From Paramacrobiotus metropolitanus (taxonomy: Eukaryota > Tardigrada > Eutardigrada > Parachela > Macrobiotidae), in the NCBI RefSeq assembly GCF_019649055.1, contig NW_026570308.1, positions 248,001-312,000 of the forward strand: a stretch of 64,000 nucleotides of DNA, read 5' to 3'. The notes beneath the pieces are model-generated. The model was not told the origin of the DNA. It did not search any database and worked only from the letters and a program-made list of their open reading frames with translations. Every line of letters starts with the position of its first letter. Positions within the stretch are counted from its first letter, which is position 1. Positions 11,217 to 42,836 of this stretch are shown here, one piece after another. The translations under genes and the position numbers were made by a program.

Positions 11217-11438
11217 GAACGTAGTGTGAAGGCAGTCACCGGTATTTTGTTTCGAAAATTATTACATGTTTTGCTATTTGATAGTGTATGGAGAAAAGCC
11301 TTTAATTAATTTTTTTCTTTGCGGTTAATAATCGCATTACAGTTTTGTTAAACTGCTTACAGTCCGTACAGTGGTGTAGTAGAATAGCGTATGGTTGTAA
11401 TAAGGTCGGCGCGTTGCTGCAGCAGGAAGTGATTGCAG

Positions 11439-13707: not shown

Positions 13708-16700
13708 TTACAGGTAAAACATGCACTGGCGGAAGAGGTCCGGTGCGATTTTGTGCAGATGCTTAGCAATGAACCTAGCATGTTTCCGAGCGTATTGTAC
13801 GGGAGCCGGCATGCGAATAGTTTCCTGAAACCAATCACACTCAGATTTCAAGGTAATTAATTTTTGTTAAAGCTATACTGTACAAACGTATCCCGCTGAA
13901 AAAGCACTATCCTTTTACAATTTTTGTCAACAGCTGAAACAACTGTAAGAAATCACGCTGCATGCCTACCGAGCAGTTGTAGTACATGTGGCACAGCATG
14001 TACGTCATCTGTTGCAGATGCTGCGGATTCAGCTGGGAATCGTCGTCGATAACGTTGTAGTATGTCGGCGCCACCGTGCCCTCGCGCACACTCTGTGATA
14101 CGACGTAAAAGTCGTAGCTGCAATGAATTTATTTGATCTTAAAATTTTTTATTAATAAATTTAAATTTCCACGTGAACATTCTTAGTAGGAGAAAACACC
14201 GTACAGAGATTCGCGTGTCACGATGCTGTCCACAATCGTCCCTGGCAGAGGATTATCAATTCGACCGTTGTCGTTTTTAAAGAAGCGAATGCTCGGTCGC
14301 TCGTTCACAAGGAGATAAGTAACCGTAATCCTACACACAAAACAAGCAAAATAAAAGATGTGCCACGAAATATCGAAATATCAAAACTTGACACACATAA
14401 ACTGCCATATTTACATACTTTCTGTCCCAAGACAGGCCATTGGTGAGATTGCGCACACCGGCCAGTTCTATCTCCTTAATATTGCCCAGCTGACCCTCGG
14501 ATATTCCTAAATTTACAATCAGTCAATTTAGGATTAAACACATGCAATAACAGCCCGCATTCCAAGCCAGTAATTTTCTAACAAGGTCCGGCAAAGCTTA
14601 CCGTGACGGTAAATAAACACACTCGCAGGAAAATTGTGTCGTTTTGCGTAAAAATAATGGAGACATTCTGTAAGAAAATGCCATGACCTCTGCTGAATCA
14701 TAATTTTATACGAGTACTGTACTGACAGAATTAATTCTTTTTACCCTTTATGAGTTGCGGAACACAAGTTAACATCTCATCGTCATCGTCCACATAGACC
14801 GCACAATTATAGTACTTGGAGAATCCCACGTTCCAGGCCGCCGCGGCCGTCACCACAATTTTCTGCATTCTACGATCGATTTGACTGCCAATCCCGATGA
14901 CCATTGCAGTCTGAAGCGGGAACTAAACAAAAGCAATCAGCAATGATTATAATTTCCAGGCATCTGTGATGCACCGCAAAAAAAACTAAGGTCAGCTTAA
15001 TTTAGATAACGGGGGTGAAAGGGGTACTTATAGCAATTTGCTAATATTTATGCGATTAATTAGATCAACAATCAAACGAGTAATCGTTAAGGTTCCGCAC
15101 AAACTAAACATCAGATCAAAGATTAAAAGCTGCGTAATAAATGATTAATTAAACCAATTATTAATTGTAAAGCTATTAATCACGCCCGCAAAACGAATGA
15201 AACGTACATGCATCGTCCAGATGTCGCCGCCGAGCTTGGCGTTCAGCTGCATGCACACTTTGGTGGCCACGCTCTTGATCTTTCCGGGGGCGCCGCTGAT
15301 CGTCTTTGCCAGAATGACTTGGGAAGCGCCTAAACGCAAAATCAATTTAACGAACAAAGTAAATAAAGGAAAAACTGGCTTGCAGTTGGAATTAAAAGAA
15401 AACAATAACAAAACTTATTTAAAATAAAAAAAAAAGAATTTTTGAAAAACAACTTACAATGTCGACGGCAACATAATTGTTTAAATGCGTCGTAACGGTC
15501 CTTTGTGGGATTGGAAAACACCGCCATAATCTACGAATAAATAAAGTGAATCACAAAACGGACAAACAAAATACAACAGCGGAGCCGGTGTCATTATACC
15601 AGTTTTAAGCCCGGATGATACAATTCCTTTATTCGCTTAATGTAGGAGCGAGACACATCAGCCACAATTTCCCTGCGAAAATCAGTGAGGTATAAACGGC
15701 AAACTTTCACCATACAACAAGTCACAATACTGCCAACACAGCGCCATTAAAATTTCGACCTAAATAATCGCCAGAAAAATAAATAATCACTGTATTTAAT
15801 GATATCGTAAATAAGCCAGATTAAAATACTGATTATCAAAGAACTAATTATTACATTAATTAACCGATTTGCAACACTTCGGCGTTTTTCGCATTCCAGG
15901 GATTTGCAAAAGGTCTGTATACCGGATATTGGAGATTCGTATTCGCCGCTTGCTCCACGTGACAAAGAATTTTCAAAAATTGATTACGTGATAACTAATG
16001 TTTTTATACAAGCTTGTGCGGAGATTAATAAAAAATTATGAAGTTTTTTATGTTTTTAATTTAGCGAATACTCTGTCTCTGGTGCCCAGTACGCGAATAC
16101 GTTGTGTAAGTGTCGGGGATTATAAAAACGTCGAAGTATTTTTTTATCGTCATTACCACTATTAACTACGAAGGAAAAAAAATGTGCTATGAATTTACAC
16201 TCTCGGATGCAGGACAACCATCCCCGTCGGCACAGCGACCTGAATAATCTGGCGTATAAATTCATTCGTTATGCCCAGGTTAGGCTGTGTGGTCAGCACA
16301 AGCCAGTTTCCTTCCAGCACCACGGCCGTCTGGAATGGAATGTTTTTCATGTGCGTGCTCCAGTCGGCCTTAATAGGATCATAAAAGTACTGCAAGCACA
16401 CAACAATCCTCATTTTCACTTCGTTTAATTCTGCGCTGAAGATCATGACCTTACTTTGTGTTCTCCCTGGGACAGCCGTTGCGGTAGCAGACAGCGGGAC
16501 GAGAATTTCACCAGTTCCTTGCCGTACTGCACGTCCCACAGCTTCAGCTCCTTCTGCACATTCTCATTGCTAAAGAAAGCCAAAAACCGAATTAAATTTC
16601 CGAACAAAAAAATTAAGAATCTTTTCCGTACCAGTAATTACAGTAGTAATTAATAATTAGTAATTTGAAATTAAATGTCATTTTACTACACATCGCAGTG

Positions 16701-19700
16701 CTGCAGTTCCTCCTGCATATTCTCATTAAAACCAAAACTCTGCATTTCTTTGCCGGAAATGGAAAAGTTCAGAAAAATTTCCTCCTGCATATTCTCATTA
16801 AAACTAAAACTCTGCATTTCTTTGTCGGAAATGGAAAAATTCAGAAAAATTTTCGAAAAAGATCGTCTTACAAACCAACAACAATTACGTGAAAATAAAC
16901 GCTTCAGTACATTAAATTACAAAACGCTAATACGTACTCAATCAGCTTGCGGATAAAGACCTCCGTGGCGTTCTTGCGGCGATCGGGATCCAGCTTGGTG
17001 TGCTTCGACACTGCCTGCATTATGCGGAAATCAGCGCGGATCTGGTCAGTGTATCCAGTCAGGCGACACAGTTCCGGCACCAGTAGAATCTCCGTGCCGC
17101 GGCAACGCATGGCCTTGTTGGCCGGCAACACGACCAGCAACGGCTGATCGTGATCGGTCACGTTCATATGGTAGCGCTATAAATAAAAAAACACATATCA
17201 ATAATAAATATCAATAAATACTGGCATCCGCCAACTTCAAGTCGAAAAGCTATCAACAACAAACACATGAGGAAAAGTGTAAGAAGGAAAAATGCAAATT
17301 CTTACATGGCAAAAATAATCGACGAAGGAGATTTTCTTTTGCTTCGATTTATCGGTGCCACGGGGTGTGTACGCGAAAAACCCGCCCGCAGAGTTTGTCC
17401 ACATGACATATTGTACTGTGTACAATTTGTGATTGTACCTGAAAATAAGGAAACCCGCTAGATTATTGTAAATTATTTAACTCTCGTCACCGTTATTCGT
17501 GGAAAAAATTATTTGTTTCAGGTACCGAAGAATGCACTGTTCTTTTGAATAAAATTAAAGATTGATAGAATAAAAACTAACTAAGCTACAGAAAATTAAA
17601 GAAAATCTAATAATAATATTAGTGATGGCAGAGAAGCTCGAAATATTGAAGCAATAATTATACATCGCGAGGACTTTTTGGCCAACGATTAACAGGTCCA
17701 CTTCTTTACGAATATTTCTCAAAGTATTTTTCTTTCCAGATATCGGTTCTGCCGCACTTTTCCACGCCTCCAGCATCGCATCGCGAGCGCTTTGTCTGCC
17801 AAGGAAAACGAGCAGGTTATCTCGAAAAAAAAAGAGACTCAGACTTTGTACAAAATATTCTGAAACACTAAAGACGAAATTATCGTGAAAATAAAATAAG
17901 AACAGAAAATCAACGTACCGAATAATGCGGAAGCGCTGATCGACGCTCATCAAGACGCGATTCTGCTCGAAAATCCCAATGGAAGTCTCAAAGCCCGGCC
18001 AGATTTCCAGGCTACAATTATCAAAAGCAAAAATACAGAATTAAAGCAATTTTCAGAAAAATGGTGCTCTAAGCAGGGCGCAATCCGAGGGAAACCGAGA
18101 AACGGCTGAAAAAGGCGCCGATGGGGGAATCGAACCCCGGCTACGTCGTTAGATCCGCGTAGGCAGTACAGTACCACTGCACCACGGCGCAATACGTTGA
18201 AATCATTTGAAAGATTTTGTCGCTGTACGTGAGCCGCTTCTCCGCTCACAGTGCAATGGAATTTACCGTTTCTGGTAACCTTCCGGTTCCAATTTACCAG
18301 CCGGATCGTAGCAGTTATCCTGAATGCGGACCATCTTCAAATCGTGCTCCTGGAATCTAAATTTGAACAATGATCAACAAATGTCAAAACGTTTCAGTTG
18401 CGTAAACAAAATAGTTTTGAAACGCATTTAATTAATAATCAATTTTCACTAATACTGACTAGAAATTTCGACACAAAATTTCAAAGCTGCCGGTCAAGTC
18501 GTTGTCACTCAGTAAGGAGGGAACGCGGCTGGCACAATTCAAATCAGCGAATAAGCAATTTAATTTTCACCTTTTAATGATCCATTAATTTTAATTGTAA
18601 ATAATTGTATATTTATCATTAATTCCATCATAACTTTTCAAAGACCGTACCGGTTCAACTGGGAATTGAGGATGACGAGCACCTGCGGATTCTGCGCGTC
18701 CAGATTTGCCGTGCGCCGCATGCGCACCTTCATATCCTGCTGATTGAACTCCACCGCATCTTCGCACTCCTATCGGCGCCATAAAAATATCGAAATTATT
18801 GAAAAATCAATAAAAACAACGTCCCGCAAATTCGCTTCATTTTACAACAAATTCATCTTTGATTCAGTTGCTGTGTAAATGTCTCTCTCGGAACTTCCGG
18901 TGCGGTCGTTTTTATAAATCACAGATTTTTTACCGAATAAAATTTTTAAAAAATTATAAAAACTGTTGCCAAAACATTTAAAAAAGCTAAAAGCATATAA
19001 TACCTATTAATGTATGTGTGAATATAATTTTACGAGGTAGATGCGAATATCTGTACTGAAAAAAATACAAGTACTGCACATGTTTTTTGTACACTTTAAA
19101 AAACATCAAAATATACAGCAGATAATTACTAATACGCAGATAAGATCAGTTATTTCATTAACAAAATCACTCTGAAATTGTAAATTGTAGAAATTTATAA
19201 GATTCAGTGAGCAGAAAATATGAAGCGCCTACCTCGGTTATTAATTCGGCAGCGGATGGGCCGACGTACAGAACACTGCCGCCGTCGAAGATGTAGGAGT
19301 TCTCAACCATCTGTTTTTTGTCGGCCCAGCGGTGCATGATGCCGAAGCGCTGGGAGCGATTGCCGGGCTGCGGATCGAAGTCCACCTGGTAGATGACGCC
19401 CTTCGCGCCCAGTGTTACATCGATACAGTTGCAGTACAACTCCACCGAGTACCAGCCATTTCCTGTTAAAACAAGCACGGTCTGGAATCTGATTAAAACC
19501 CACAAAAATTTCCAGAAATTATTATTCAACATGTTAAAATATTTACAAATTAAAATAAGAACTAAATTATTTTAGCACAACATTTAACAACAGAATCAAA
19601 ATTAGCATTCAACAATTAAGCATTCAGTGGGGCATTATTAATTTGTGTTCATTAGCGACTTCAAGAAACTGCCAAAAATGAAATTAAAGAATGAAAAAAA

Positions 19701-19972
19701 GTGAAAATGAAATTTGTAAAACCTGTTATGCAGCAACTGAATGCAGTAACAACTAACAAGTGATGGTTTAAAATAAAGTTAACATCGATACAGTATATTA
19801 CTGTGAACACTAACATGTAAATTTGTACATACAAACGGTAACGCACCCTGCTTATTAGCTGCCATGACTTCCCTCTGGAAAAGCGATTTTGGAACTCCCT
19901 TATCCCAAAATGCTGCGCTGCAACCAGGTGCGATGCAGCCCCCACGGGCCACGGCGCACGGAATCGAGATCC
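13708..19972 (-). CDS. piwi-like: PIWI-clade Argonaute with a degenerate slicer triad
   Basis: Nineteen minus-strand exons in consistent phase: 19847-19972, 19233-19462, 18651-18769, 18267-18356, 17919-18011, 17664-17795, 17306-17438, 16938-17176, 16455-16569, 16199-16389, 15600-15672, 15458-15530, 15208-15329, 14745-14922, 14602-14667, 14419-14506, 14205-14330, 13970-14117, 13708-13824. From ATG 19865 they give 783 residues. The N domain ([12 protein letters not shown]), PAZ (about 184-352: [28 protein letters not shown]), MID and PIWI (about 540-783) follow, ending MFYL. PIWI proteins bind piRNAs and silence transposons. The 5'-phosphate pocket is kept: Y491, K495, Q506, K534. The catalytic positions read IGIG (G555), IYRHG (H624) and QYARK (R758) instead of D, D, H; E592 aligns with the glutamate finger. 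It should bind but not cleave. No RG-rich N-terminus is visible; the exon at 19847-19972 is open upstream of the ATG, so the true start may lie further 5'. Confidence 0.94.
16690..16850 (-). pseudogene. Two decayed copies of a PIWI exon start, in tandem
   Basis: Within the intron between 16570 and 16937, a 72-bp unit occurs twice (16707-16778 and 16779-16850) with about three differences. On the minus strand its edge reads [13 protein letters not shown] and then a stop. This matches the start of the downstream PIWI exon at 16569 ([13 protein letters not shown]). The copied part includes the intron-exon junction, but the acceptor is not preserved. It is a local duplication of an exon edge that later decayed. 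Confidence 0.75.
18114..18190 (-). tRNA. tRNA-like gene or tRNA pseudogene in a PIWI intron
   Basis: The 77-nt minus-strand segment has complementary ends (GCGCCG and CGGCGC), an A-box-like TGGTGCAGTGGT, a B box GGTTCGATTCC within a T-arm (GGGG, TTCGATT, CCCC), and is followed at once by TTTTT, a Pol III terminator. The anticodon region is odd: a 5-bp stem (CTACG and CGTAG) encloses a 12-nt loop, leaving almost no variable loop. I therefore cannot assign an anticodon. It may be a damaged tRNA, a tRNA-derived SINE head, or an unusual functional gene. It lies on the same strand as the host PIWI gene. Confidence 0.5.
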
Positions 19973-20393: not shown

Positions 20394-21060
20394 AAATCAC
20401 GGTTCCCAAACACGCTCCACCCAGGGTCGCTAAAGCAATCCGGCAGGGTTCCAAATTTCCGGACCCATGTACATTACTACGGCGCGTTCGTTAATAATGT
20501 TTCGGTTACAAGTTGCGTATTTACGTAACGGTCACTCAAAAACCCTCCAGCCGGGGTCGCTAAAAAAATTCGTCCTGTGCCCAAATTTCCGGACCCCTGT
20601 ACATTACTACGGCGAGTTCGTCAATGATGACAAGGTTATAATTTACGTATTCACGTCACGGTTCCCCAAAAACGCTCCACCCGAGGTCCAAATTTCCGGA
20701 CACCTGCCTATTACCACGGCGAAATTTTTTATAATGACCCTTTTATATTATACGGAACGATTCCCCAGAAAGCTCTACGCGGGGTCGCTAAAAAAACTCG
20801 TCTTGAGCCAAAATTTCCTGTCTCCTGTACATTACTACAACGAGTTCGTCAATACTGGCCGGGTTATAATTTACGTATTCACGTCACGGTTCCCCAAAAA
20901 CGCTCCACCCAAGGCCGTTAAAGAAATCCAGCTCGATCTAAATTTTGCAACCCCCCGTACGTGCTGCAGCGGTTTCGTCAGTAATGACCCGGTATAAGCT
21001 ACGTAATTACGTCACGGTCACCCAAAAACGCCCCACCCGGGGTCGCTAAAAAATCTGGCC
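20394..21060. repeat. Left edge of the satellite with diverged monomers
   Basis: The first monomers, from ATCACGGTTCCCAAACACGC at about 20394, differ from the interior consensus at many positions and are not part of an obvious higher-order block. The transition from unique DNA is abrupt at about 20394, roughly 420 bp from the nearest PIWI exon. Confidence 0.75.
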
Positions 21061-21079
21061 CGGGTCCAAATTTCTGGAC

Positions 21080-24000
21080 ACCTGCACATTACCACGACGA
21101 ATTTTTTTCTAATGACCCATTTATAATATACTTCACAGTTTCCAAAAAACGCTCTACCCGGTTTCGCTAGAAAAATCCGTCCGAGGCCCAAATTTCCTGT
21201 CTCCTGTACAGTACTACGGCGAGTTCGTCAATAATGACCAGGCTATAATTTACGTATTCACATTACGGTTCCCCAAAACGCTCCAACCAAAGCCGCAATA
21301 GAAATCCAGCCCGATCTAAATTTTCCGACCTCCCGTACATTGCTACTGCGGGTTCGCCAATAAAGACCCGGTCATAAGTTACGTATTTACGTCACGGTCA
21401 CCTACAAACGCTCCACCCGAGGTCCCGAAATAAATCTGTCCCGGGTTTACATTTTCAGACGCCTTGTACATTACCACGGCGGATTTGTTTATAGTGACCC
21501 GGTTATAATATACGTCACGGTTCCCCAGAAACGCTCCACCCGGGGTCGCTAAAAATTCTGGCCGGGTCCAAATTCCGGACACCTGTACATTACCGCGGCG
21601 AATTTTTTTATACTGACCCATTTATAGTATACGTCACGGTTCCCAAAAACAATCCACCCGGGGTCGCTGAAAAAATCCGTCCGGAGCCAAAATTTCCTGT
21701 CTCCTGTACAATACTACAATGAGTTTGTCAATGCTGACCGAGTTTTAATTTACGTATTCACGTCACGGTTCCCCAAAAACGCTCCACCCAAGGCCGCTAA
21801 ACAAATCCAGCCCGATCTAAATTTTGCGACCCCCCATACATTAGTACTGCGGGTTCGTCAAGAAAGACCCGTTTATAAGTTACGTATTTACGTCACGGTC
21901 ACCCAAAACGCTACACCCGTGGTCGCCAAAAATTTTAGCCCGATGCAAATTTTCCGACCTCCATACGTGCTTCTGCAGGTTAGTCAATAATGACCCGGTT
22001 ATAAGGTACGTATTTACGTTACGGTCACCCAAAAACGCTCACCCAGGGTCGCTAAAAAATTCTGGCCCGGGTCCAAATTTCTGGACACCTGTAGGTTACC
22101 ACGGCGAATTTTTTATAATGACCGAGTTATATTATACGTCACGGTTCCCCAAAAACGCTCCACCTGGTTCGCTAAAAAAATCCGTCCGGAGCCCAAATTC
22201 CCTGTCTCCTGTACATTACTACGGCGAGTTCGTCGATACTGACCGAGTTATAATTTACGTATTCACGTGACATTTCCCCGAAATCGCTCCACCTAAGGCC
22301 GCTAAAGAAATCCAGACCGATCTAAGTTTTGCGACCCCCCGTACGTGCTGCTGCGGGTTCGTCGATAATGACCCAATTATAAGCTACGTATTTACGTTAC
22401 GGTTCCCCAAAAACGCTCCACCCGGTTTTGCTAAAAAAGTCCGTCCGTGGCAAAAATTTTCTGTCTCCTGTACATTACTACTGCGAGTTCGTCAATAATG
22501 ACCAGGCTATAATTTTCGTATTCACGTTACGGTTCCCCAAAAACGCTTCAACCAAAGCCGCAAAAGAAATTCAGCCCAATCTAAGTTTTTCGAACTCCCG
22601 TACATTGCTACTGCGGGTTCGCCAATAAAGACCCGGTCATATGTTACGTGTTTACGTCACGGTCACCTAAAAACGCTCCACCCGAGGTCCCGAAATAAAT
22701 CTGCGCCGGGTTGAAATTTTCTGTCGCCTTGTACATTACCACGGCAGATTTGTTTATAGTGACCCGGTTATAATATACGTCACGGTTCCCCAAAAACGTT
22801 CTACAAGGTTTCGCTAGAAAAATCCGTCCGTGGCCCAAATTTCCTGTCTCCTGTACATTACTACGGCGAGTTCGCTAATAATGACCAGGCTATAATTTAC
22901 GTATTCACACTACGGTTCCCCAAAAACGCTCCAACCAAAGCCGCAATAGAAATCCAGCCCGATCTAAATTTTCCGACCTCCCGTACATTGCTTCTGCGGG
23001 TTCGCCAATAAAGACCCGGTCATAAGTTACGTATTTACGTCACGGTCACCTACAAACGCTCCACCCGAGGTCCCGAAATAAATCTGTCCCGGGTTTACAT
23101 TTTCAGACGCCTTGTACATTACCACGGCGGATTTGTTTATAGTGACCCGGTTATAATATACGTCACGGTTCCCCAGAAACGCTCCACCCGGGGTCGCTAA
23201 AAATTCTGGCCGGGTCCAAATTCCGGACACCTGCACATTACCACGACGAATTTTTTTCTAATGACCCATTTATAATATACTTCACAGTTTCCAAAAAACG
23301 CTCTACCCGGTTTCGCTAGAAAAATCCGTCCGAGGCCCAAATTTCCTGTCTCCTGTACAGTACTACGGCGAGTTCGTCAATAATGACCAGGCTATAATTT
23401 ACGTATTCACATTACGGTTCCCCAAAAACGCTCCAACCAAAGCCGCAATAGAAATCCAGCCCGATCTAAATTTTCCGACCTCCCGTACATTGCTACTGCG
23501 GGTTCGCCAATAAAGACCCGGTCATAAGTTACGTATTTACGTCACGGTCACCTACAAACGCTCCACCCGAGGTCCCGAAATAAATCTGTCCCGGGTTTAC
23601 ATTTTCAGACGCCTTGTACATTACCACGGCGGATTTGTTTATAGTGACCCGGTTATAATATACGTCACGGTTCCCCAGAAACGCTCCACCCGGGGTCGCT
23701 AAAAATTCTGGCCGGGTCCAAATTCCGGACACCTGTACATTACCGCGGCGAATTTTTTTATACTGACCCATTTATAGTATACGTCACGGTTCCCAAAAAC
23801 AATCCACCCGGGGTCGCTGAAAAAATCCGTCCGGAGCCAAAATTTCCTGTCTCCTGTACAATACTACAATGAGTTTGTCAATGCTGACCGAGTTTTAATT
23901 TACGTATTCACGTCACGGTTCCCCAAAACGCTCCACCCAAGGCCGCTAAACAAATCCAGCCCGATCTAAATTTTGCGACCCCCATACATTAGTACTGCGG

Positions 24001-25375
24001 GTTCGTCAAGAAAGACCCGTTTATAAGTTACGTATTTACGTCACGGTCACCCAAAACGCTACACCCGTGGTCGCCAAAAAATTTTAGCCCGATGCAAATT
24101 TTCCGACCTCCATACGTGCTTCTGCAGGTTAGTCAATAATGACCCGGTTATAAGGTACGTATTTACGTTACGGTCACCCAAAAACGCTCACCCAGGGTCG
24201 CTAAAAAATTCTGGCCCGGGTCCAAATTTCTGGACACCTGTAGGTTACCACGGCGAATTTTTTATAATGACCGAGTTATATTATACGTCACGGTTCCCCA
24301 AAAACGCTCCACCTGGTTCGCTAAAAAAATCCGTCCGGAGCCCAAATTCCCTGTCTCCTGTACATTACTACGGCGAGTTCGTCGATACTGACCGAGTTAT
24401 AATTTACGTATTCACGTGACATTTCCCCGAAATCGCTCCACCTAAGGCCGCTAAAGAAATCCAGACCGATCTAAGTTTTGCGACCCCCGTACGTGCTGCT
24501 GCGGGTTCGTCGATAATGACCCAATTATAAGCTACGTATTTACGTTACGGTTCCCCAAAACGCTCCACCCGGTTTTGCTAAAAAAGTCCGTCCGTGGCAA
24601 AAATTTTCTGTCTCCTGTACATTACTACTGCGAGTTCGTCAATAATGACCAGGCTATAATTTTCGTATTCACGTTACGGTTCCCCAAAAACGCTTCAACC
24701 AAAGCCGCAAAAGAAATTCAGCCCAATCTAAGTTTTTCGAACTCCCGTACATTGCTACTGCGGGTTCGCCAATAAAGACCCGGTCATATGTTACGTGTTT
24801 ACGTCACGGTCACCTAAAAACGCTCCACCCGAGGTCCCGAAATAAATCTGCGCCGGGTTGAAATTTTCTGTCGCCTTGTACATTACCACGGCAGATTTGT
24901 TTATAGTGACCCGGTTATAATATACGTCACGGTTCCCCAAAACGTTCTACAAGGTTTCGCTAGAAAAAATCCGTCCGTGGCCCAAATTTCCTGTCTCCTG
25001 TACATTACTACGGCGAGTTCGCTAATAATGACCAGGCTATAATTTACGTATTCACACTACGGTTCCCCAAAAACGCTCCAACCAAAGCCGCAATAGAAAT
25101 CCAGCCCGATCTAAATTTTCCGACCTCCCGTACATTGCTTCTGCGGGTTCGCCAATAAAGACCCGGTCATAAGTTACGTATTTACGTCACGGTCACCTAC
25201 AAACGCTCCACCCGAGGTCCCGAAATAAATCTGTCCCGGGTTAACATTTTCAGACGCCTTGTACATTACCACGGCGGATTTGTTTATAGTGACCCGGTTA
25301 TAATATACGTCACGGTTCCCCAGAAACGCTCCACAAGGGGTCGCTAAAAATTCTGGCCGGGTCCAAATTCCGGAC
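21080..25375. repeat. Two-copy higher-order block of about 2.15 kb (17 monomers)
   Basis: Long stretches recur at an offset of 2147-2150 bp: for example 21379-21621 and 23529-23771, and 22428-22628 and 24575-24775. The copies start at the distinctive word CACGACGAATTTTTTTCTAA at about 21092 and 23242. They differ mainly by single-base homopolymer length. Parts of the block recur again to about 27.3 kb. Confidence 0.85.
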
Positions 25376-28300
25376 ACCTGTACATTACCGTGGCGAATTT
25401 TTTTATACTGACCCATTTATAGTATACGTCACGGTTCCCCATAAACAATCCACCCGGGGTCGCTGAAAAAATCCGTCCGGAGCCAAAATTTCCTGTCTCC
25501 TGTACAATACTACAATGAGTTTGTCAATACTGACCGAGTTTTAATTTACGTATTCACGTCACGGTTCCCCAAAAACGCTCCACCCAAGGCCGCTAAACAA
25601 ATCCAGCCCGATCTAAATTTTGCGACCCCCCATACATTAGTACTGCGGGTTCGCCAATAAAGACCCGGTCATAAGTTACGTATTTACGTCACGGTCACCT
25701 ACAAACGCTCCACCCTAAGTCCCGAAATAAATCTGTCCTGGGTTTACATTTTCAGACGCCTTGTACATTACCTCGGCGGATTTGTTTATAGTGACCCGGT
25801 TATAATATACGTCACGGCTCCCCAAAAACGCTCCACCTGGTTCGCTAAAAAAATCCGTCCGGAGCCCAAATTCCCTGTTTCCTGCACATTACTACGGCGA
25901 GTTCGTCGATACTGACCGAGTTATAATTTACGTATTCACGTGACATTTCCCCGAAATCGCTCCACCTAAGGCCGCTAAAGAAATCCCTCCCTATGCAAAT
26001 TTTCCGACCCCCATACGTGCTTCTGCAGCTTCGTCAATAATGACCCGGTTATAAGTTACGTATTTACGTTACGGTCACCCAAAAACGCTTCACCCAAGGC
26101 CGCTATAGAAATCCAGCCCGATTGAAATTTTCCGACCTCCCGTACATTAGTACTGCGGGTTCGTCAATAAAGTTCCGGTCATAATTACGTAATTACGTCA
26201 CGGTCACCCAAAAACGCGACACATGGGGTCGCTAAAAAATTCTGGCCGGGTCCGAATTCCGGACACCCGTACATTACCACGGCGAATTTTTTTATACTGA
26301 CCCTTTGATAGTATATGTCACGGTTCCCCAAAAACGATCCACCCGGGGTCGCTAAAAAAGTCCGTCCGTGGCCCAAATTTTCTGTTTCCTGTACATTACT
26401 ACTGCGAGTTCGTCAATAATGACCAGGCTATAATTTTCGTATTCACGTTACGGTTCCCCAAAAACGCTTCAACCAAAGCCACAAAAGAAATTCAGCCCAA
26501 TCTAAGTTTTCCGGAATCCCGTACATTGCTACTGCGGGTTCGCCAATAAAGACCTGGTCATAAGTTACGTGTTTACGTCACGGTCACCTAAAAACGCTCC
26601 ACCCGAGGTCCCGAAATAAATCTGCGCCGGGTTGAAATTTTCTGTCGCCTTGTACATTACCACGGCAGATTTGTTTATAGTGACCCGGTTATAATATACG
26701 TCACGGTTCCCCAAAAACGCTCTACAAGGTTTCGCTAGAAAAATCTGTCCGTGGCCCAAATTTCCTGTCTCCTGTACATTACTACGGCGAGTTCGTTAAT
26801 AATGACCAGGCTATAATTTACGTATTCACATTACGGTTCCCCAAAAACGCTCCAACCAAAGCCGCAATAGAAATCCAGCCCGATCTAAATTTTCCGACCT
26901 CCCGCACATTGCTTCTGCGGGTTCGCCAATAAAGACTCGGTCATAAGTTACGTATTTACGTCACGGTCACCTACAAACGCTCCACCCGAGGTCCCGAAAT
27001 AAATCTGTCCCGGGTTTACATTTTCAGACGCCTTGTACATTACCACGGCGGATTTGTTTATAGTGACCCGGTTATAATATACGTCACGGTTCCCCAGAAA
27101 CGCTCCACCCGGGGTCGCTAAAAATTCTGGCCGGGTCCAATTTCCGGACACCTGTACATTACCGCAGCGATTTTTTTTAACTGACCCATTTATAGTATAC
27201 GTCACGGTTCCCCATAAACAATCCACCCGGGGCCGCTGAAAAAATCCGTCCGGAGCCAAAATTTCCTGTCTCCTGTACAATACTACAATGAGTTTGTCAA
27301 TACTGACCGAGTTTTAATTTACGTATTCACGTCACGGTTCCCCAAAAACGCTCCACCCAAGGCCGCTGAACAAATCCAGCCCGATCTAACTTTTGCGACC
27401 CCCCATACATTAGTACTGCGGGTTCGCCAATAAAGACCCGGTCATAAGTTACGTATTTACGTCACGGTCACCTACAAACGCTCCACCCGAGGTCCCGAAA
27501 TAAATCTGTCCTGGGTTTACATTTTCAGACGCCTTGTACATTACCACGGCGGATTTGTTTATAGTGACCCGGTTATAATATACGTCACGGTTCTCCAAAA
27601 ACGCTCCACCTGGTTCGCTAAAAAAATCCGTCCGGAGCCCAAATTCCCTGTCTCCTGTACATTACTACGGCGAGTTCGTCGATACTGACCGAGTTATAAT
27701 TTACGTATTCACGTGACATTTCCCCGAAATCGCTCCACCTAAGGCCGCTAAAGAAATCCCTCCCTATGCAAATTTTCCGACCCCCATACTTGCTTCTGCA
27801 GCTTCGTCAATAATGACCCGGTTTTAAGTTACGTATTTACGTTACGGTCACCCAAAAACGCTTCACCCAAGGCCGCTATAGAAATCCAGCCCGATTGAAA
27901 TTTTCCGACCCCCCATACGTGCTTCTGCTGGTTCGTCAATAATGACCCGGTTATAAGTTACGTATTTACGTTACGGTCACCCAGAAAAGCTTCACCCATG
28001 GCCGCTAAAGAAATCCAGCCCGATATAAAATTTCCGACCTCCCGTACATTAGTACTGCGGGTTCGTCAATAAAGTTCCGGTCATAATTTACGTATTTACG
28101 TCACGGTCACCCAAAAACGCGACACCCGGGGTCGCTAAAAAATTCTGGCCGGGTCCGAATTCCGGACACCCGTACATTACCACGGCGAATTTTTTTATAC
28201 TGACCCTTTGATAGTATACGTCACGGTTCCCCAAAAACGATCCACCCGGGGTCGCTAAAAAAGTCCGTCGGTGGCCCAAATTTTCTGTTTCCTGTACATT

Positions 28301-30116
28301 ACTACTGCGAGTTCGTCAATAATGACCAGGCTATAATTTACGTATTTAAATCACGGTTCCCCAAAAACGCTCAAACCAAAGCCGCAAAAGAATCCAGCCC
28401 GATCTAAATTTTCCGACCTCCCATACGTGCTGATGCAATGTCGTCAATAATGACCCGGTTATAAGCTACATATTTACGTCACGGTCACCCAAAAACGCTC
28501 CCTCGGAGTCACTAAAAAATTTTGGTCGGGGCCAAATTTCCGGACACCTGTGCATTACCACGGCGAATTTTTTTCTAACGACTCATTTATAATATACGTC
28601 ACGGTTTCCCAAAAACGCTCCACCCCGTTTCGCTAAAAAAATCCGTCCGTAGCCCAAACTTTCTGTCTCCTGTACATTACAACGGCGAGTTCGTCAATAA
28701 TGACCAGGCTATAATTTACGTATTCAAATCAGGGTTCCCCAAAAACGCTCCACCCAAGGCAGCTAAAGAAATCCAGCCCGATCTAAATTTTCCGACCTCC
28801 CGTACATTAGTACTGCGGGTTCGTCAATAAAGTTTCGGTCATAAGCTACGTATTTACGTCACAGGCACCCAAAAACGCCACACCCGGGGTCGCCAAAAAA
28901 TTCTGGCCCGGGTCTTAATTTCTGGACACTTGTAGGTTACCACGGCGAATTTGTTTATAGTGTCCCGGTTATAATATACGTCACGGTTCCCCAGAAACGC
29001 TCCGCCCGGGGTCGGTAAAAAATTCTGGCCGGGTCCGAATTCCGGACACTTGTAGGTTACCACGGCGAATTTTTTATAATGACCCATTTAAAGTATACGT
29101 CACGGTTTCCCAAAAACGCTCCACCCGGTTTCGCTAAAAAAATCCGTCCGTAGCCCAAACTTTCTGTGTCCTGTACATTACAACGGCGAGTTCGTCGATA
29201 ATGACCAGGCTATAATTTACGTATTCAAATTACGATTCGCCAAAAACGCTCCACCCAAGGCCGCTGAAGAAATCCAGCCCGATCTAAATTTTCCGACCTC
29301 CCGTACATTAGTACTGCGGGTTCGTCAATAACGTTTCGGTCATAAGCTACGTATTTACGTCACAGTCTCCCAAGAACGCTACGCCCGCAGTCGTTAAAAA
29401 ATTCTGGACCGGGTCCAAATATCTGGACACCTGTAGGTTACCACGGCGAATGTTTTATAATGACCCATTTATATTATACGTCACGGTAACTCAAAAACGA
29501 TCCACCCGGGGTCGCTAAAAAATTCTGGCCGGGTCCAAATTCCGGACACCCGTACATTACCACGGCGAATTTTTTTATACTGACCCATTGATAGTATACG
29601 TCACGGTTCACCAAAAACGATCCACCCGGGGTCGCTAAAAAAATCCATCCGAAGCCAAAATTTCCTGTCTCCTGTACATTACTACAACGAGTTCGTCAAT
29701 ACTGACCGGGTTTTAATTTACGTATTCACGTCACGGTTCCCCAAAAACGATTCACCCAAGGCCGCTAAAGAAATCCCTCCCGATGCAAATTTTCCGACCC
29801 CCATACGTGCTTCTGCAGCTTCGTCAATAATGACCCGGTTATAAGCTACGTATTTACGTCACGGTCACCCAAAAACGCTCCACCCGGAGTCACTAAAAAT
29901 TTTGGTCGGGGCCAAATTTCCGGACACCGGTGCATTACCACGGCGAATTTTTTCCTAATGACTCATTTATAATATACGTCACGGTTTCCCAAAAACGATC
30001 CAACCGGTTCCGCTAAAAAAATCCGTCCGTAGCCCAAACTTTCTGTCTCCTGTACATTACTACGGCGAGTTCGTCAATAATGACCAGGCTATAATTTACG
30101 TATTCAAGTTACGGTA

Positions 30117-30295
30117 CGAGGACATTTGGGTGCTGTGAACATACCCTGCACGATTAGGCTGCGATGAACAGCTGGTTAGCCGTAGCTCGCAACGCTACTA
30201 ATATCACAGTCTGAATGCAAGCGGCTATTAATTTAGCCGGCTGTTCATCGCAGCCTAATCGTGCGGGGTATGTTCACAGCACCCAAATGTCCTCG
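30117..30295. mobile_element. 179-bp palindromic MITE inserted in the satellite
   Basis: Inverted termini start CGAGGACATTTGGGTGCTGT on both strands and extend about 57 bp with one mismatch, then continue less perfectly around a short centre. The element is flanked by TA on each side (30115-30116 and 30296-30297), within GTAC at both ends. A TA target duplication would fit a Tc1/mariner-type non-autonomous element; a GTAC duplication is the alternative. The satellite monomer resumes on the far side at CCCAAAAATGC. There is no coding capacity. It is the only non-satellite insertion I see in the array. Confidence 0.9.
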
Positions 30296-30919
30296 TACCC
30301 AAAAATGCTCCACCCAAGGCCGCTAAAGAAATCCAGCCCGATCTAAATTTTCCGACCTCCCGTACATTAGTACTGCGGGTTCGTCAATAAAGTTCCGGTC
30401 ATAAGTTACGCATTTACGTCACGGTCACCCAAAAACGCTCCACCCGGGGCCGCTAAAAAATTCTGGCCGGGTCCAAATTCCGGACACCCGTACATTACCA
30501 CGGCGAATTTTCTTATACTGACCTATTGATAGTATACGTCACGGTTCCCCAAAAACGATCCACCCGGGGTCGCTAAAAAAATCCGTCCGAAGCCAAAATT
30601 TCCTGTCTCCTGTACATTACTACAACGAGTTCGTCAATACTGACCGGGTTTTAAATTACGTATTCACGTCACGGTTCCCCAAAAACGCTCCACCCAAGGC
30701 CGCTAAAGAAATCCCTTTCTATGCAAATTTTCCGACCCCCATACGTGCTTCTGCAGCTTCGTCAATAATGACCCGGTTATAAGTTACGTATTTACGTTAC
30801 GGTCACCCAAAACGCTTCACCCAAGGCCGCTATAGAAATCCAGCCCGATTGAAATTTTCCGACCCCCATACGTGCTTCTGCAGGTTCGTCAATAATGACC
30901 CGGTTATAAGTTACGTATT

Positions 30920-33900
30920 TACGTTACGGTCACCTAGAAACGCTTCACCCAAGGCCGCTAAAGAAATCCAGCCTGATATAAATTTTCCGACCTCCCGTAT
31001 ATTAGTACTGCGGGTTCTTCAATAAGGTTCCGGTCATAATTTACGTATTTACGTCACAATCACCCAAAAAGGCGACACCCGGGGTCGCTAAAAAATTCTG
31101 GCCCGGGTCCAAATTTCTGGACACCTGTAGGTTACCACGGCGAATTCTTTATAATGACTCATTTATATTATACGTCACGGTTTCCCAAAAACGCTCCACC
31201 CGGTTTCGCTAAAAAAATCCGTCCGTAGCCCAAACTTTCTGTCTCCTGTACTTACTACTGCGAGTTCGTCAATAATGACCAGGCTTTAATTTTCGTATTC
31301 ACGTTACAGTTCCCCAAAACGCTTCAACCAAAGCCGGAAAAGAAATTCAGCCCGATCTAAGTTTTCCGAACTCCCGCACATTGCTACTGCAGGTTCGCCA
31401 ATAAAGACCCGGTCATAAGTTACGCATTTACGTCACGGTCACCTAAAAACGCTCCACCCGGGGTCGCTAAAGAAATCCAGCCCGATCTAAATTTTCCGAC
31501 CTCTCGTACATTAGTACTGCGGGTTCGTCAATAAAGTTCCGGTCATAAGTTACGCATTTACGTCACGGTCACCTAAAAACGCTCCACCCGGGGTCGCTAA
31601 AAAATTCTGGCCGGGTCCAAATTCCGGACACCCGTACATTACCACGGCGAATTTTCTTATACTGACCTATTGATAGTATACGTCACGGTTCCCCAAAAAC
31701 GATCCACCCGGGGTCGCTAAAAAAATCCGTCCGAAGCCAAAATTTCCTGTCTCCTGTACATTACTACAACGAGTTCGTCAATACTGACCGGGTTTTAAAT
31801 TACGTATTCACGTCACGGTTCCCCAAAAACGCTCCACCCAAGGCCGCTAAAGAAATCCCTCTCTATGCAAATTTTCCGACCCCCATACGTGCTTCTGCAG
31901 CTTCGTCAATAATGACCCGGTTATAAGTTACGTATTTACGTTACGGTCACCCAAAAACGCTTCACCCAAGGCCGCTATAGAAATCCAGCCCGATTGAAAT
32001 TTTCCGACCCCCCATACGTGCTTCTGCTGGTTCGTCAATAATGACCCGGTTATAAGTAACGTATTTACGTTACGGTCACCCAGAAACGCTTCACCCATGG
32101 CCGCTAAAGAAATCCAGCCCGATATAAATTTTCCGACCTCCCGTACATTAGTACTGCGGGTTCGTCAATAAAGTTCCGGTCATAATTTACGTATTTACGT
32201 CTCGGCCACCCAAAACGCGACACCCAGGGTCGCTAAAAATTCTGGCCGGGTCCGAATTCCGGACACACGTACATTACCACGGCAAATTTTTTTATGCTGA
32301 CCCTTTGATAGTATACGTCACGGTTCCCCAAAAACGATCCACCCGGGGTCGCTAAAAAAGTCCGTCCGTAGCCCAAACTTTCTGTCTCCTGTACATTACT
32401 ACTGCGAGTTCGTCAATAATGACCAGCCTATAATTTTCGTATTCATGTTACAGTTCCCCAAAAACGCTTCAACCAAAGCCGCAAAAGAAATCCAGCCCGA
32501 TCTAAATTTTCCGACCTCCCGTACATTAGTACTGCGGGTTCGTCAATAAAGTTCCGGTCATAAGTTACGCATTTACGACACGGTCACCCAAAAACGCTCC
32601 ACCCGGGGCCGCTAAAAAATTCTGGCCGGGTCCAAATTCCGGACACCCGTACATTACCACGGCGAATTTTCTTATACTGACCTATTGATAGTATACGTCA
32701 CGGTTCCCCAAAAACGATCCACCCGGGGTCGCTAAAAAAATCCGTCCGAAGCCAAAATTTCCTGTCTCCTGTACATTACTACAACGAGTTCGTCAATACT
32801 GACCGGGTTTTAAATTACGTATTCACGTCACGGTTCCCCAAAAACGCTCCACCCAAGGCCGCTAAAGAAATCCCTCTCTATGCAAATTTTCCGACCCCCA
32901 TACGTGCTTCTGCAGCTTCGTCAATAATGACCCGGTTATAAGTTACGTATTTACGTTACGGTCACCCAAAAACGCTTCACCCAAGGCCGCTATAGAAATC
33001 CAGCCCGATTGAAATTTTCCGACCCCCCATACGTGCTTCTGCAGGTTCGTCAATAATGACCCGGTTATAAGTTACGTATTTACGTTACGGTCACCTAGAA
33101 ACGCTTCACCCAAGGCCGCTAAAGAAATCCAGCCTGATATAAATTTTCCGACCTCCCGTATATTAGTACTGCGGGTTCTTCAATAAAGTTCCGGTCATAA
33201 TTTACGTATTTACGTCACAATCACCCAAAAAGGCGACACCCGGGGTCGCTAAAAAATTCTGGCCCGGGTCCAAATTTCTGGACACCTGTAGGTTACCACG
33301 GCGAATTCTTTATAATGACTCATTTATATTATACGTCACGGTTTCCCAAAAACGCTCCACCCGGTTTCGCTAAAAAAATCCGTCCGTAGCCCAAACTTTC
33401 TGTCTCCTGTACTTACTACTGCGAGTTCGTCAATAATGACCAGGCTTTAATTTTCGTATTCACGTTACAGTTCCCCAAAAACGCTTCAACCAAAGCCGCA
33501 AAAGAAATTCAGCCCGATCTAAGTTTTCCGAACTCCCGCACATTGCTACTGCAGGTTCGCCAATAAAGACCCGGTCATAAGTTACGCATTTACGTCACGG
33601 TCACCTAAAAACGCTCCACCCGGGGTCGCTAAAGAAATCCAGCCCGATCTAAATTTTCCGACCTCTCGTACATTAGTACTGCGGGTTCGTCAATAAAGTT
33701 CCGGTCATAAGTTACGCATTTACGTCACGGTCACCTAAAAACGCTCCACCCGGGGTCGCTAAAAAATTCTGGCCGGGTCCAAATTCCGGACACCCGTACA
33801 TTACCACGGCGAATTTTCTTATACTGACCTATTGATAGTATACGTCACGGTTCCCCAAAAGACGATCCACCCGGGGTCGCTAAAGAAAATCCGTCCGAAG

Positions 33901-34540
33901 CCAAAATTTCCTGTCTCCTGTACATTACTACAACGAGTTCGTCAATACTGACCGGGTTTTAAATTACGTATTCACGTCACGGTTCCCCAAAAACGCTCCA
34001 CCCAAGGCCGCTAAAGAAATCCCTCTCTATGCAAATTTTCCGACCCCCATACGTGCTTCTGCAGCTTCGTCAATAATGACCCGGTTATAAGTTACGTATT
34101 TACGTTACGGTCACCCAAAAACGCTTCACCCAAGGCCGCTATAGAAATCCAGCCCGATTGAAATTTTCCGACCCCCCATACGTGCTTCTGCTGGTTCGTC
34201 AATAATGACCCGGTTATAAGTAACGTATTTACGTTACGGTCACCCAGAAACGCTTCACCCATGGCCGCTAAAGAAATCCAGCCCGATATAAATTTTCCGA
34301 CCTCCCGTACATTAGTACTGCGGGTTCGTCAATAAAGTTCCGGTCATAATTTACGTATTTACGTCTCGGCCACCCAAAAACGCGACACCCAGGGTCGCTA
34401 AAAAATTCTGGCCGGGTCCGAATTCCGGACACACGTACATTACCACGGCAAATTTTTTTATGCTGACCCTTTGATAGTATACGTCACGGTTCCCCAAAAA
34501 CGATCCACCCGGGGTCGCTAAAAAAGTCCGTCCGTAGCCC
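30920..34540. repeat. Higher-order block repeated at about 2.16 kb (17 monomers)
   Basis: Matching anchors recur about 2158-2163 bp apart: the TCACCTAGAAACGC monomer at about 30930 and 33093, the ACCTCTCGTACATTAG monomer at about 31499 and 33659, and the TCTCGGCCACCC monomer at about 32208 and 34363. Confidence 0.8.
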
Positions 34541-36200
34541 AAACTTTCTGTCTCCTGTACATTACTACAACGAGTTCGTCAATACTGACCGGGTTTTATA
34601 TTACGTATTCACGTCACGGTTCCCCAAAAACGCTCCACCCAAGGCCGCTAAAGAAATCCCTCTCTATGCAAATTTTCCGACCCCCATACGTGCTTCTGCA
34701 GCTTCGTCAATAATGACCCGGTTATAAGTTACGTATTTACGTTACGGTCACCCAAAAACGCTTCACCCAAATCCGCTATAGAAATCCAGCCCGATTGAAA
34801 TTTTCCGACCCCCCATACGTGCTTCTGCTGGTTCGTCAATAATGACCCGGTTATAAGTTACGTATTTACGTTACGGTCACCCAGAAACGCTTCACCCATG
34901 GCCGCTAAAGAAATCCAGCCCGATATAAATTTTCCGACCTCCCGTACATTAGTACTGCGGGTTCGTCAATAAAGTTCCGGTCATAATTTACGTATTTACG
35001 TCTCGGCCACCCAAAAACGCGACACCCAGGGTCGCTAAAAAATTCTGGCCGGGTCCGAATTCCGGACACCCGTACATTACCACGGCAAATTTTTTTATGC
35101 TGACCCTTTGATAGTATACGTCACGGTTCCCCAAAAACGATCCACCCGGGGTCGCTAAAAAAGTCCGTCCGTAGCCCAAACTTTCTGTCTCCTGTACATT
35201 ACTACTGCGAGTTCGTCAATAATGACCAGCCTATAATTTTCGTATTCATGTTACAGTTCCCCAAAAACGCTTCAACCAAAGCCGCAAAAGAAATTCAGCC
35301 CGATCTAAGTTTTCCGAACTCCCGTACATTGCTACTGCGGGTTCGCCAATAAAGACCCGGTCATAAGTTACGTGTTTACGTCACGGTCACCTAAAAACTC
35401 TCCACCCGAGGTCCCGAAATAAATCTGTGCCGGGTTAAAATTTTCTGTCGCCTTGTACATTACCACGGCAGATTTGTTTATAGTGACCCGGTTATAATAT
35501 ACGTCACGGTTACCCAAAACGATCCACCCGGGGTCGCTAAAAAATCCGTCCGAAGCCAAAATTTCCTGTCTCCTGTACATTACTACAACGAGTTCGTCAA
35601 TACTGACCGGGTTTTAAATTACGTATTCACGTCACGGTTCCCCAAAAACGTTCCACCCAAGGCCGCTAAAGAAATCCTCTCTATGCAAATTTTCCGACCC
35701 CATACGTGCTTCTGCAGCTTCGTCAATAATGACCCGGTTATAAGTTACGTATTTACGTTACGGTCACCCAAAAACGCTTCACCCAAATCCGCTATAGAAA
35801 TCCAGCCCGATTGAAATTTTCCGACCCCCCATACGTGCTTCTGCTGGTTCGTCAATAATGACCCGGTTATAAGTTACGTATTTACGTTACGGTCACCCAG
35901 AAACGCTTCACCCATGGCCGCTAAAGAAATCCAGCCCGATATAAATTTTCCGACCTCCCGTACATTAGTACTGCGGGTTCGTCAATAAAGTTCCGGTCAT
36001 AATTTACGTATTTACGTCTCGGCCACCCAAAAACGCGACACCCAGGGTCGCTAAAAAATTCTGGCCGGGTCCGAATTCCGGACACCCGTACATTACCACG
36101 GCAAATTTTTTTATGCTGACCCTTTGATAGTATACGTCACGGTTCCCCAAAAACGATCCACCCGGGGTCGCTAAAAAAGTCCGTCCGTAGCCCAAACTTT
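34325..36200. repeat. Higher-order steps of 5 and 8 monomers
   Basis: The same monomer pair (minus-strand open frames at 34351-34542, 34988-35179 and 36004-36195) recurs after 637 bp and then 1016 bp, that is 5 and 8 monomers. This shows unequal exchange by different whole-monomer steps within one short stretch. Confidence 0.85.
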
Positions 36201-39200: not shown

Positions 39201-39823
39201 ACGGTCACCTAAAAACTCTCCACCCGAGGTCCCGAAATAAATCTGTGCCGGGTAAAATTTTCTGTCGCCTTGTACATTACCACGGCAGATTTGTTTATAG
39301 TGACCCGGTTATAATATACGTCACGGTTACCCAAAACGATCCACCCGGGGTCGCTAAAAAATCCGTCCGAAGCCAAAATTTCCTGTCTCCTGTACATTAC
39401 TACAACGAGTTCGTCAATACTGACCGGGTTTTAAATTACGTATTCACGTCACGGTTCCCCAAAAACGCTCCACCCAAGGCCGCTAAAGAAATCCCTCTCT
39501 ATGCAAATTTTCCGACCCCCATACGTGCTTCTGCAGCTTCGTCAATAATGACCCGGTTATAAGTTACGTATTTACGTTACGGTCACCCAAAAACGCTTCA
39601 CCCAAATCCGCTATAGAAATCCAGCCCGATTGAAATTTTCCGACCCCCCATACGTGCTTCTGCTGGTTCGTCAATAATGACCCGGTTATAAGTTACGTAT
39701 TTACGTTACGGTCACCCAGAAACGCTTCACCCATTTCCGCTAAAGAAATCCAGCCCGATATAAATTTTCCGACCTCCCGTACATTAGTACTGCGGGTTCG
39801 TCAATAAAGTTCCGGTCATAATT
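36004..39823. repeat. Two tandem 1.91-kb higher-order units (15 monomers)
   Basis: The anchors at 36004, 37913 and 39823 are spaced 1909 and 1910 bp. The intervening monomer order largely agrees between the two units. The step is 15 monomers at 127.3 bp each. Confidence 0.85.
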
Positions 39824-42800: not shown

Positions 42801-42836
42801 GTACTGCGGGTTCGTCAATAAAGTTCCGGTCATAAT

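What the first reader, a model, noticed from the sequence alone, without database searches (positions are those of the whole stretch)
13708..19972. PIWI protein with all three slicer metal ligands replaced but guide pocket intact
Seen directly: the three motif positions read IGIG, IYRHG and QYARK where active PIWIs have IGID, IYRDG and QYAHK. The residues are G555, H624 and R758 in the spliced model. The gene is otherwise well formed: 19 exons in phase, no internal stop, the 5'-phosphate pocket residues Y491, K495, Q506 and K534 kept, and a normal C-terminus. Established knowledge: Argonaute slicing needs the DEDH tetrad. Inference: this is a maintained, non-slicing PIWI acting by binding and recruitment, as in nuclear transcriptional silencing. 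Loss of all three ligands, not one, suggests a long catalytically inactive history.
Basis: partly seen in the sequence, partly recalled or inferred. Interest (0 to 1): 0.85.

Follow-up and report, generated by a model that had tools for sequence, protein, structure and literature searches.

The report
Non-slicing PIWI gene in a tardigrade
This gene looks like a preserved PIWI protein, a guard against jumping genes, that has lost its RNA-cutting residues in steps while keeping the parts that hold its guide RNA; PIWIs without cutting residues are already known, so its interest lies mainly in how this one got there.

Summary
An independent spliced model (19 exons, 783 aa, no stop) gives G555, H624 and R758 exactly where Siwi has D670, D740 and H874. 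No change of splice border restores them.

The genome is probably a tardigrade's. Three paralogues keep DEDH. The nearest paralogues read D-Q-D-R and D-E-D-R, and a broken neighbour H-Q-G-K. By parsimony the histidine was lost first, in a shared ancestor; both aspartates went later, on this gene's own branch.

It is not a plain pseudogene. Overall omega is 0.20 and omega=1 is rejected. Of 41 positions invariant in nine other PIWIs it changes three, two of them the catalytic aspartates. Constraint since its last sequence exchange with its neighbour is likely but not proven.

The model lacks the two N-terminal exons (one basic, glycine-rich) of its paralogues, which weakens the proposed nuclear role. 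A 43-kb satellite begins about 540 bp upstream.

Most likely it is a guide-binding, non-cutting PIWI. PIWIs lacking all three residues are in print for mites, and Drosophila Piwi is a shown non-slicer: a new member of a known kind.

The parts
19847..19865 (-). Exon 1 of the model: ATG + 6 codons (MAANKQ), phase 1 at its end; hypothetical
   Evidence: open frame, donor GTGCGT, right phase, but no homology to L009 or L011 seen here
19233..19462 (-). Exon 2 (N domain start); homologous to exon 3 of paralogue L009; acceptor at the same place
   Evidence: homology to L009 runs 87 bp further upstream, to 19549, and ends there
18651..18769 (-). Exon 3 (homogenised with L009)
18267..18356 (-). Exon 4 (homogenised with L009)
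17919..18011 (-). Exon 5 (homogenised with L009)
17664..17795 (-). Exon 6 (older divergence); PAZ begins
17306..17438 (-). Exon 7 (older divergence), PAZ domain
16938..17176 (-). Exon 8 (nearer to L009, dS 0.59), PAZ end and linker
16455..16569 (-). Exon 9 (intermediate, dS 0.79 to L009)
16199..16389 (-). Exon 10 (intermediate, dS 0.74 to L009)
15600..15672 (-). Exon 11
15458..15530 (-). Exon 12, MID: 5'-phosphate pocket Y491 and K495
15208..15329 (-). Exon 13, MID: pocket Q506 and K534 (homogenised with L009)
14745..14922 (-). Exon 14, PIWI domain: D1 replaced by G555 (codon 14889-14887 GGC); glutamate finger E592 kept (14778-14776 GAG); older divergence
14602..14667 (-). Exon 15: D3 replaced by H624 (14605-14603 CAC); older divergence
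14419..14506 (-). Exon 16 (nearer to L009, dS 0.58)
14205..14330 (-). Exon 17
13970..14117 (-). Exon 18 (homogenised with L009)
13708..13824 (-). Exon 19 plus stop TAA (13710-13708): H4 replaced by R758 (13788-13786 CGG); normal C-terminus FYL
20405..63738 (.). 130-bp satellite array, about 337 copies, just upstream (5') of the gene; lies where paralogues would have N-terminal exons

Best explanation
The gene encodes a PIWI-clade Argonaute that binds a guide RNA but cannot slice. It belongs to a four-gene subfamily of this (probably tardigrade) genome. Slicing was first disabled by loss of the catalytic histidine (R in three members, K in the fourth). With cutting already gone, this copy then lost both catalytic aspartates, while the rest of the PIWI and MID core stayed under selection. 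It most likely acts as an RNA-guided binding and recruiting platform, or as a competitor of the DEDH PIWIs (L013, L014, L021). Shown: residues, kept pocket, past purifying selection, and order of loss by parsimony on an unrooted tree. Inferred: no slicing (by analogy with Siwi H874K and human AGO1), guide binding, recruitment. Where it acts is unknown; the missing N-terminal tail speaks against a Drosophila-Piwi-like nuclear role for this copy.
For: Tetrads from one alignment: window G-E-H-R; L009 D-Q-D-R; L011 D-E-D-R; L010 H-Q-G-K; L013, L014, L021 D-E-D-H. The tree joins window, L009, L011 and L010 at 100/100 and window with L009 at 99/97, catalytic columns left out. No stop in 783 codons; in a neutral simulation at distance 0.1 copies carry 7.6 stops on average and 0 of 300 are stop-free. 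Omega on the window branch: 0.20 over 746 codons (LRT against 1: 29.3, p=6e-8), 0.175 in older exons (p=2e-6), 0.155 in the three exons with the lost ligands (p=0.011). Only 3 of 41 invariant positions changed, 2 of them catalytic. PDB sequence search with a provisional chain of this gene: PIWI chains E down to 3e-114, HrAgo1 4e-45, best AGO2 chain 1e-28. In Siwi, H874K almost abolishes slicing with loading kept, and Drosophila Piwi (DVDK) did not cut its target efficiently and is judged not a slicer (PMC7015924, passages). In human AGO1 the slicer defect is put down to the DEDR tetrad, and the glutamate finger is kept even in inactive AGO1 and AGO4 (PMC9262622, passages).
Against: No expression, small-RNA or protein data. 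Exon 1 is hypothetical and two N-terminal exons are missing. The window branch is longer than its sister's (0.32 against 0.03), and polarised amino-acid changes in older exons are 90 against 17, with 50 unresolved, so constraint looks looser; yet equal omega for window and L009 is not rejected (p=0.29 over all codons). In the homogenised tracts the likelihood test does not reject omega=1 (p=0.31), so very recent loss of function is possible. No other species could be examined.
Confidence: 0.7

Rival explanations
1. A recently dead duplicate: a 5'-truncated copy next to a satellite array that was kept readable by exchange with its neighbour L009 and has only lately stopped being used.
For: Two N-terminal exons not found; homology stops 87 bp above exon 2; long branch; likelihood test not significant in recent tracts; neighbour L010 shows decay, with one frameshift and one stop.
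Against: No stop or frameshift over 783 codons (its 18 introns all have GT-AG borders, but the aligner allowed only GT or GC donors and AG acceptors); omega 0.155-0.20; parsimony counts since homogenisation 11 nonsynonymous of 34 changes against 75% expected (p=2.5e-7); of 39 non-catalytic invariant positions one is changed.
Confidence: 0.2
2. A nuclear co-transcriptional silencer of the Drosophila Piwi type.
For: Non-slicing tetrad as in Drosophila Piwi; a GTSF1-like pair of CHHC fingers exists in the genome.
Against: Not an orthologue of Drosophila Piwi, which groups with Siwi at 100/100; this copy's model lacks the basic N-terminal tail exon that L009 and L011 have.
Confidence: 0.2
3. A catalytically dead competitor: it takes up guides or partners of the slicing PIWIs and tunes their activity, in the cytoplasm.
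For: Guide pocket kept, ligands lost, N-terminal tail not found, DEDH paralogues present.
Against: Nothing direct; expression and guide set unknown.
Confidence: 0.2
4. Assembly, splicing or editing artefact: the true protein has D, D and H.
For: Each D change is one base away from L009's codon (GAC to GGC, GAC to CAC). Raw reads were not available.
Against: Residues lie inside exons with their motif neighbours; A-to-I editing cannot turn GGC or CAC into an aspartate codon (standard code); R at the fourth position recurs in two separate paralogues.
Confidence: 0.03

Closest known systems
Drosophila Piwi (PDB 6kr6; DVDK tetrad)
   Same: PIWI-clade Argonaute, non-canonical tetrad with the histidine replaced by a basic residue, guide pocket kept; judged not to be a slicer (PMC7015924, passages)
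   Different: Keeps both aspartates and lost the glutamate finger instead; groups with Siwi, not with this clade; has an N-terminal tail (recalled)
Mite PIWI-family proteins lacking the DDH/DDD/DDK motif (SRG, SRS or NDH/NDY)
   Same: PIWI-family Argonautes of which some (those called Ago3) have none of the three catalytic residues (PMC7659050, passages)
   Different: Different residues and another phylum; selection and order of loss were not seen in the passages read; no sequence comparison was made here
Human AGO1 (DEDR)
   Same: Arginine at the fourth position with glutamate finger kept; same state as paralogue L011 (PMC9262622, passages)
   Different: AGO clade, not PIWI; aspartates kept; convergent
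C. elegans WAGO Argonautes
   Same: Many are non-slicing (recalled, not tested)
   Different: Separate Argonaute clade with a different small-RNA class (recalled)
Siwi, EfPiwi, PDB 'Piwi-like protein 1' (9s0z)
   Same: PIWI clade, PAZ-MID-PIWI, pocket residues, C-terminal end
   Different: DEDH tetrad; have an N-terminal tail (recalled)

Membership tests
PIWI-clade Argonaute | Piwi and PAZ domains | tested here: met
   PF02171 E 1.8e-64 (478-768), PF02170 E 8.9e-18 (208-334), both over cut-off
PIWI-clade Argonaute | Closer to PIWI than to AGO | tested here: met
   PDB search with a provisional chain: PIWI chains up to E 3e-114, HrAgo1 4e-45, AGO2 at best 1e-28; the tree held PIWIs only, no AGO outgroup
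PIWI-clade Argonaute | N domain and N-terminal arginine/glycine-rich tail | tested here: not met
   Second tail exon found genome-wide only at L009 and L011; both tail exons sought in the window and ten loci, only L009 and L011 match; first tail exon not sought genome-wide. ArgoN not reported for this copy at E<=0.01, weak in L009 (E 5e-4, below cut-off). The start of the N domain is present. A distal unseen first exon is not excluded
PIWI-clade Argonaute | 5'-phosphate pocket Y-K-Q-K and intact C-terminus | tested here: met
   Y491, K495, Q506, K534 and ending FYL aligned to Siwi
PIWI-clade Argonaute | Binds piRNAs | not testable with these tools
   Needs small-RNA sequencing of the immunoprecipitated protein
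Slicing PIWI (DEDH) | Catalytic tetrad D-E-D-H | tested here: not met
   G-E-H-R
Drosophila-Piwi-type nuclear silencer | Orthology to Drosophila Piwi | tested here: not met
   Drosophila Piwi groups with Siwi 100/100; the window clade is separate
Drosophila-Piwi-type nuclear silencer | Loss of slicing with guide pocket kept | tested here: met
   Sequence only; activity not measured
Drosophila-Piwi-type nuclear silencer | Nuclear entry and recruitment of chromatin silencing factors | not testable with these tools
   N-terminal tail absent in the model argues against; no cell data
Pseudogene | Broken frame or omega near 1 | tested here: not met
   No stop or frameshift; omega 0.20, p=6e-8 against 1. 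Recent tracts alone: inconclusive by likelihood (p=0.31)

The most novel reading that the evidence does not exclude
A PIWI subfamily of this tardigrade gave up slicing as a group by losing the histidine. Copies freed in this way then shed their aspartates in parallel (window G..H, L010 H..G); L012, outside the subfamily, lost its own (A..L, with M for the histidine). The window copy, stripped of its N-terminal tail and patched by exchange with L009 in many exons but not in those that carry the lost ligands, now works as a dedicated guide-holding pseudo-slicer that competes with or scaffolds for the cutting PIWIs.
Probability: 0.2. Interest if true: 0.65.

Novelty: new member of a known kind. 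Interest (0 to 1): 0.45.

Why it matters
Whether animals need the slicer activity of each PIWI, and in which order catalytic residues are lost, is hard to read from single cases such as Drosophila Piwi and human AGO1. Here one genome holds intact DEDH PIWIs, DEDR and DQDR paralogues, and copies without any aspartate. That is a graded series which can be tested by expression, guide sequencing and slicing assays. It also gives a testable rule: the histidine goes first and the glutamate finger may stay.

Tried and rejected
Rejected: restoration of D, D, H by other splice borders or by RNA editing (residues lie within exons with their motif neighbours; GGC and CAC cannot be edited A-to-I into aspartate).

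Rejected: the idea, from per-exon distances, that the window gene is an outgroup to L009 plus L011 in its older exons. Quartet counts with L010 as outgroup favour window with L009 there too (59 against 41 and 29 sites), and so does the protein tree. I now speak only of a mosaic with uneven synonymous distance (chi-square 95.3, 17 df, p=7e-13 for window-L009; p=0.49 and 0.36 for the other pairs). Intron-flank similarity supports gene conversion only moderately (mean z 4.1 over 16 flanks against 2.3 over 20, p=0.017); some flanks of older exons are similar too.

Led nowhere: Rfam and ARAGORN on the window (0 matches each); Maelstrom family search (no match, but no control rang). Literature on tardigrade PIWI paralogues: listings of 'tardigrade/Piwi/Argonaute/small RNA', 'Hypsibius/piRNA/Piwi', 'Paramacrobiotus/Argonaute' and 'Ramazzottius/Piwi' showed no title or abstract start on PIWI catalytic residues in tardigrades. 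I saw passages of six papers and no whole text. No eukaryote collection was on hand for orthologues. Structure prediction was not run: its stated rule counts only proteins that the DNA gives letter for letter, and this protein is spliced.
Full report
WHERE THE WINDOW LIES. The window is contig C88, 248001-312000, of a 169.8-Mb genome in 533 contigs. I therefore call the genome a eutardigrade's; its size fits Paramacrobiotus metropolitanus (recalled, not tested).

THE OBSERVATION. I wrote a protein-to-genome aligner with GT-AG introns and rebuilt the gene, starting from a hand-joined chain of open frames and then from the paralogue L009. The model has 19 exons on the minus strand, 783 codons and no stop or frameshift. 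The residues are G555, H624 and R758, exactly as reported. The 5'-phosphate pocket (Y491, K495, Q506, K534) and the C-terminus are present.

THE FAMILY IN THIS GENOME. PF02171 gives 57 exon-level matches that I group into 21 loci; one more (L032) came. Of these 22, I modelled 13 PIWI-type loci (window, L009-L015, L021, L031-L034). Three others are AGO-type by spliced model (L019, L020, L022), five look AGO-type from exon fragments (L002-L006), and one, near C2:3.30 Mb, was not read. Eight PIWI-type loci give a tetrad: window G-E-H-R; L009 (same contig, about 50 kb away) D-Q-D-R; L010 (same contig) H-Q-G-K, with one frameshift and one stop; L011 D-E-D-R; L012 A-gap-L-M; and L013, L014 and L021 D-E-D-H. 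L014 is cut at its contig end. The other five (L015, L031-L034) are broken copies of the L021 type. So 3 of 8 readable PIWIs keep DEDH and 5 of 8 do not.

ORDER OF LOSS. A tree of 12 MID-PIWI sequences, with the four catalytic columns left out, joins window, L009, L011 and L010 at 100/100 and window with L009 at 99/97. All four have R or K for the histidine; L009 and L011 keep both aspartates. The root was not inferred, but L013, L014, L021 and three of the four outside sequences have DEDH. The shortest history is loss of the histidine in the common ancestor of the four, then both aspartates on the window branch and, separately, on the L010 branch. L012 lies outside the four; its own place is weakly supported (72/76) and its branch long. 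Its aspartate losses are then separate; its loss of the histidine need not be, since the well-supported branches force only two changes for all non-DEDH rows, Drosophila Piwi included. In Siwi the single change H874K nearly abolishes slicing while loading is kept (PMC7015924, passages). In human AGO1 the DEDR tetrad accounts for the slicer defect (PMC9262622, passages). So slicing was probably lost at the histidine step, before the aspartates went; this is inference.

IS IT ALIVE? A neutral copy at distance 0.1 would carry 7.6 stops on average, and 0 of 300 simulated copies were stop-free; at 0.05 the figures are 4.0 stops and 3.7% stop-free. Branch omega for the window gene, in a three-sequence codon model with L009 and L011, is 0.20 over 746 codons (p=6e-8 against 1), 0.175 in the older exons (p=2e-6) and 0.155 in the three exons that carry the lost ligands (p=0.011). 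Of 41 columns invariant in seven reference PIWIs plus L009 and L011, the window changes three: the two catalytic aspartates and one residue near the C-terminus (p=0.0037); with the seven references alone it changes 10 of 51 (p=0.035). L010 and L012 show the same bias (2 of 6 and 2 of 7 changes, p=0.018 and 0.026). This pattern fits selective loss of catalysis better than general decay. Against this: the window branch is long (0.32 against 0.03 for L009); polarised amino-acid changes in older exons are 90 against 17, with 50 unresolved; and in the recently homogenised tracts the likelihood test does not reject omega=1 (p=0.31), although parsimony counts do (11 of 34 nonsynonymous, p=2.5e-7). 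An earlier fit of those tracts, with the first 25 divergent codons kept in, gave omega 0.38, also not different from 1. L011 is near saturation at synonymous sites, so the parsimony polarisation is noisy.

A MOSAIC WITH ITS NEIGHBOUR. Synonymous distance between window and L009 differs strongly from exon to exon, from about 0.2 to saturated (chi-square 95.3, p=7e-13). The other two pairs do not show this. Exons 2 (most of it), 3, 4, 5, 13 and 18 are close (dS 0.17-0.48); 8 and 16 less so (0.59, 0.58); 9 and 10 are intermediate (0.79, 0.74). Exons 14, 15 and 19, with the three lost ligands, are distant (dS 1.08, saturated, 2.6). Gene conversion is the simplest account. Intron flanks support it moderately (p=0.017).

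THE 5' END. L009 and L011 start with two further exons, the second with a basic glycine-rich stretch. Neither is in the window, and the second matches nowhere else in the genome at E<=10; the first was not sought genome-wide. Homology to L009 stops 87 bp above exon 2, at 19549. A 130-bp satellite (about 337 copies) begins at 20405 and ends before the next contig stretch read. Exon 1 (MAANKQ) fits in phase but is unproven.

MECHANISM. Best reading: a guide-loaded, non-cutting PIWI acting as a binding platform or a competitor of the slicing PIWIs. Putative piRNAs with a ping-pong signature are reported for the tardigrade Hypsibius dujardini (PMC4323106, passages), which fits slicing paralogues of the L013/L014/L021 kind. 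A GTSF1-like CHHC pair and RdRP-family genes are in this genome.

NOVELTY. PIWIs without any of the three residues are reported in mites (PMC7659050, passages), and Drosophila Piwi is judged a non-slicer. This is a new member of a known kind. In the listings of nine searches I did not see this graded series within one genome; I saw passages of six papers only.

Noticed in passing
window 20405-63738: Satellite array of a 130-bp unit, about 337 copies (a 380-bp period is also reported), with strong strand skew, starting about 540 bp upstream of the gene's inferred ATG; the next 10 kb of contig show none of a 10-base marker counted 10-17 times per 4 kb in the array.
   Followed up: partly
window 16707-16852, intron before exon 9: Two 72-bp tandem copies that translate to a stretch resembling the start of exon 9 (NENMQEEL), as if the exon's beginning had been duplicated into the intron.
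   Followed up: no
window 18110-18191, intron between exons 4 and 5: Minus-strand tRNA-like stretch with box A and box B look (recalled motifs); ARAGORN and Rfam report nothing there.
   Followed up: no
window 5520-6950 and 11306-12783: RING-finger 3' exons of an ankyrin/RING gene (looks like Mind bomb, recalled) occur twice, with an F-box-like open frame (weak, below cut-off) on the other strand in between.
   Followed up: no
L031, L033, L034 (contigs C5, C26, C112): Broken copies of an L021-type PIWI segment with the same translation over the MID-PIWI stretch on three contigs, with the same stop and frameshift; L015 and L032 are further broken copies, so a PIWI fragment has spread by copying.
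   Followed up: partly
L012 (C2:2911000-2920999): A further PIWI-like gene, outside the window subfamily, with A, L and M at the D, D, H positions and the loop after the first position shortened.
   Followed up: partly
L022 (C23:455500-462000): AGO-type locus whose model reads S where AGOs have the first aspartate and N for the histidine: another likely non-slicer.
   Followed up: no
L040, L041 (contig C7): RNA-dependent RNA polymerase family genes (PF05183, E down to 4e-79; 7 exon-level matches, all on contig C7).
   Followed up: no
L038, L039 (contig C33:813225-813673): Two CHHC zinc fingers 0.4 kb apart (PF05253), as in GTSF1/Asterix, a PIWI partner (recalled).
   Followed up: no
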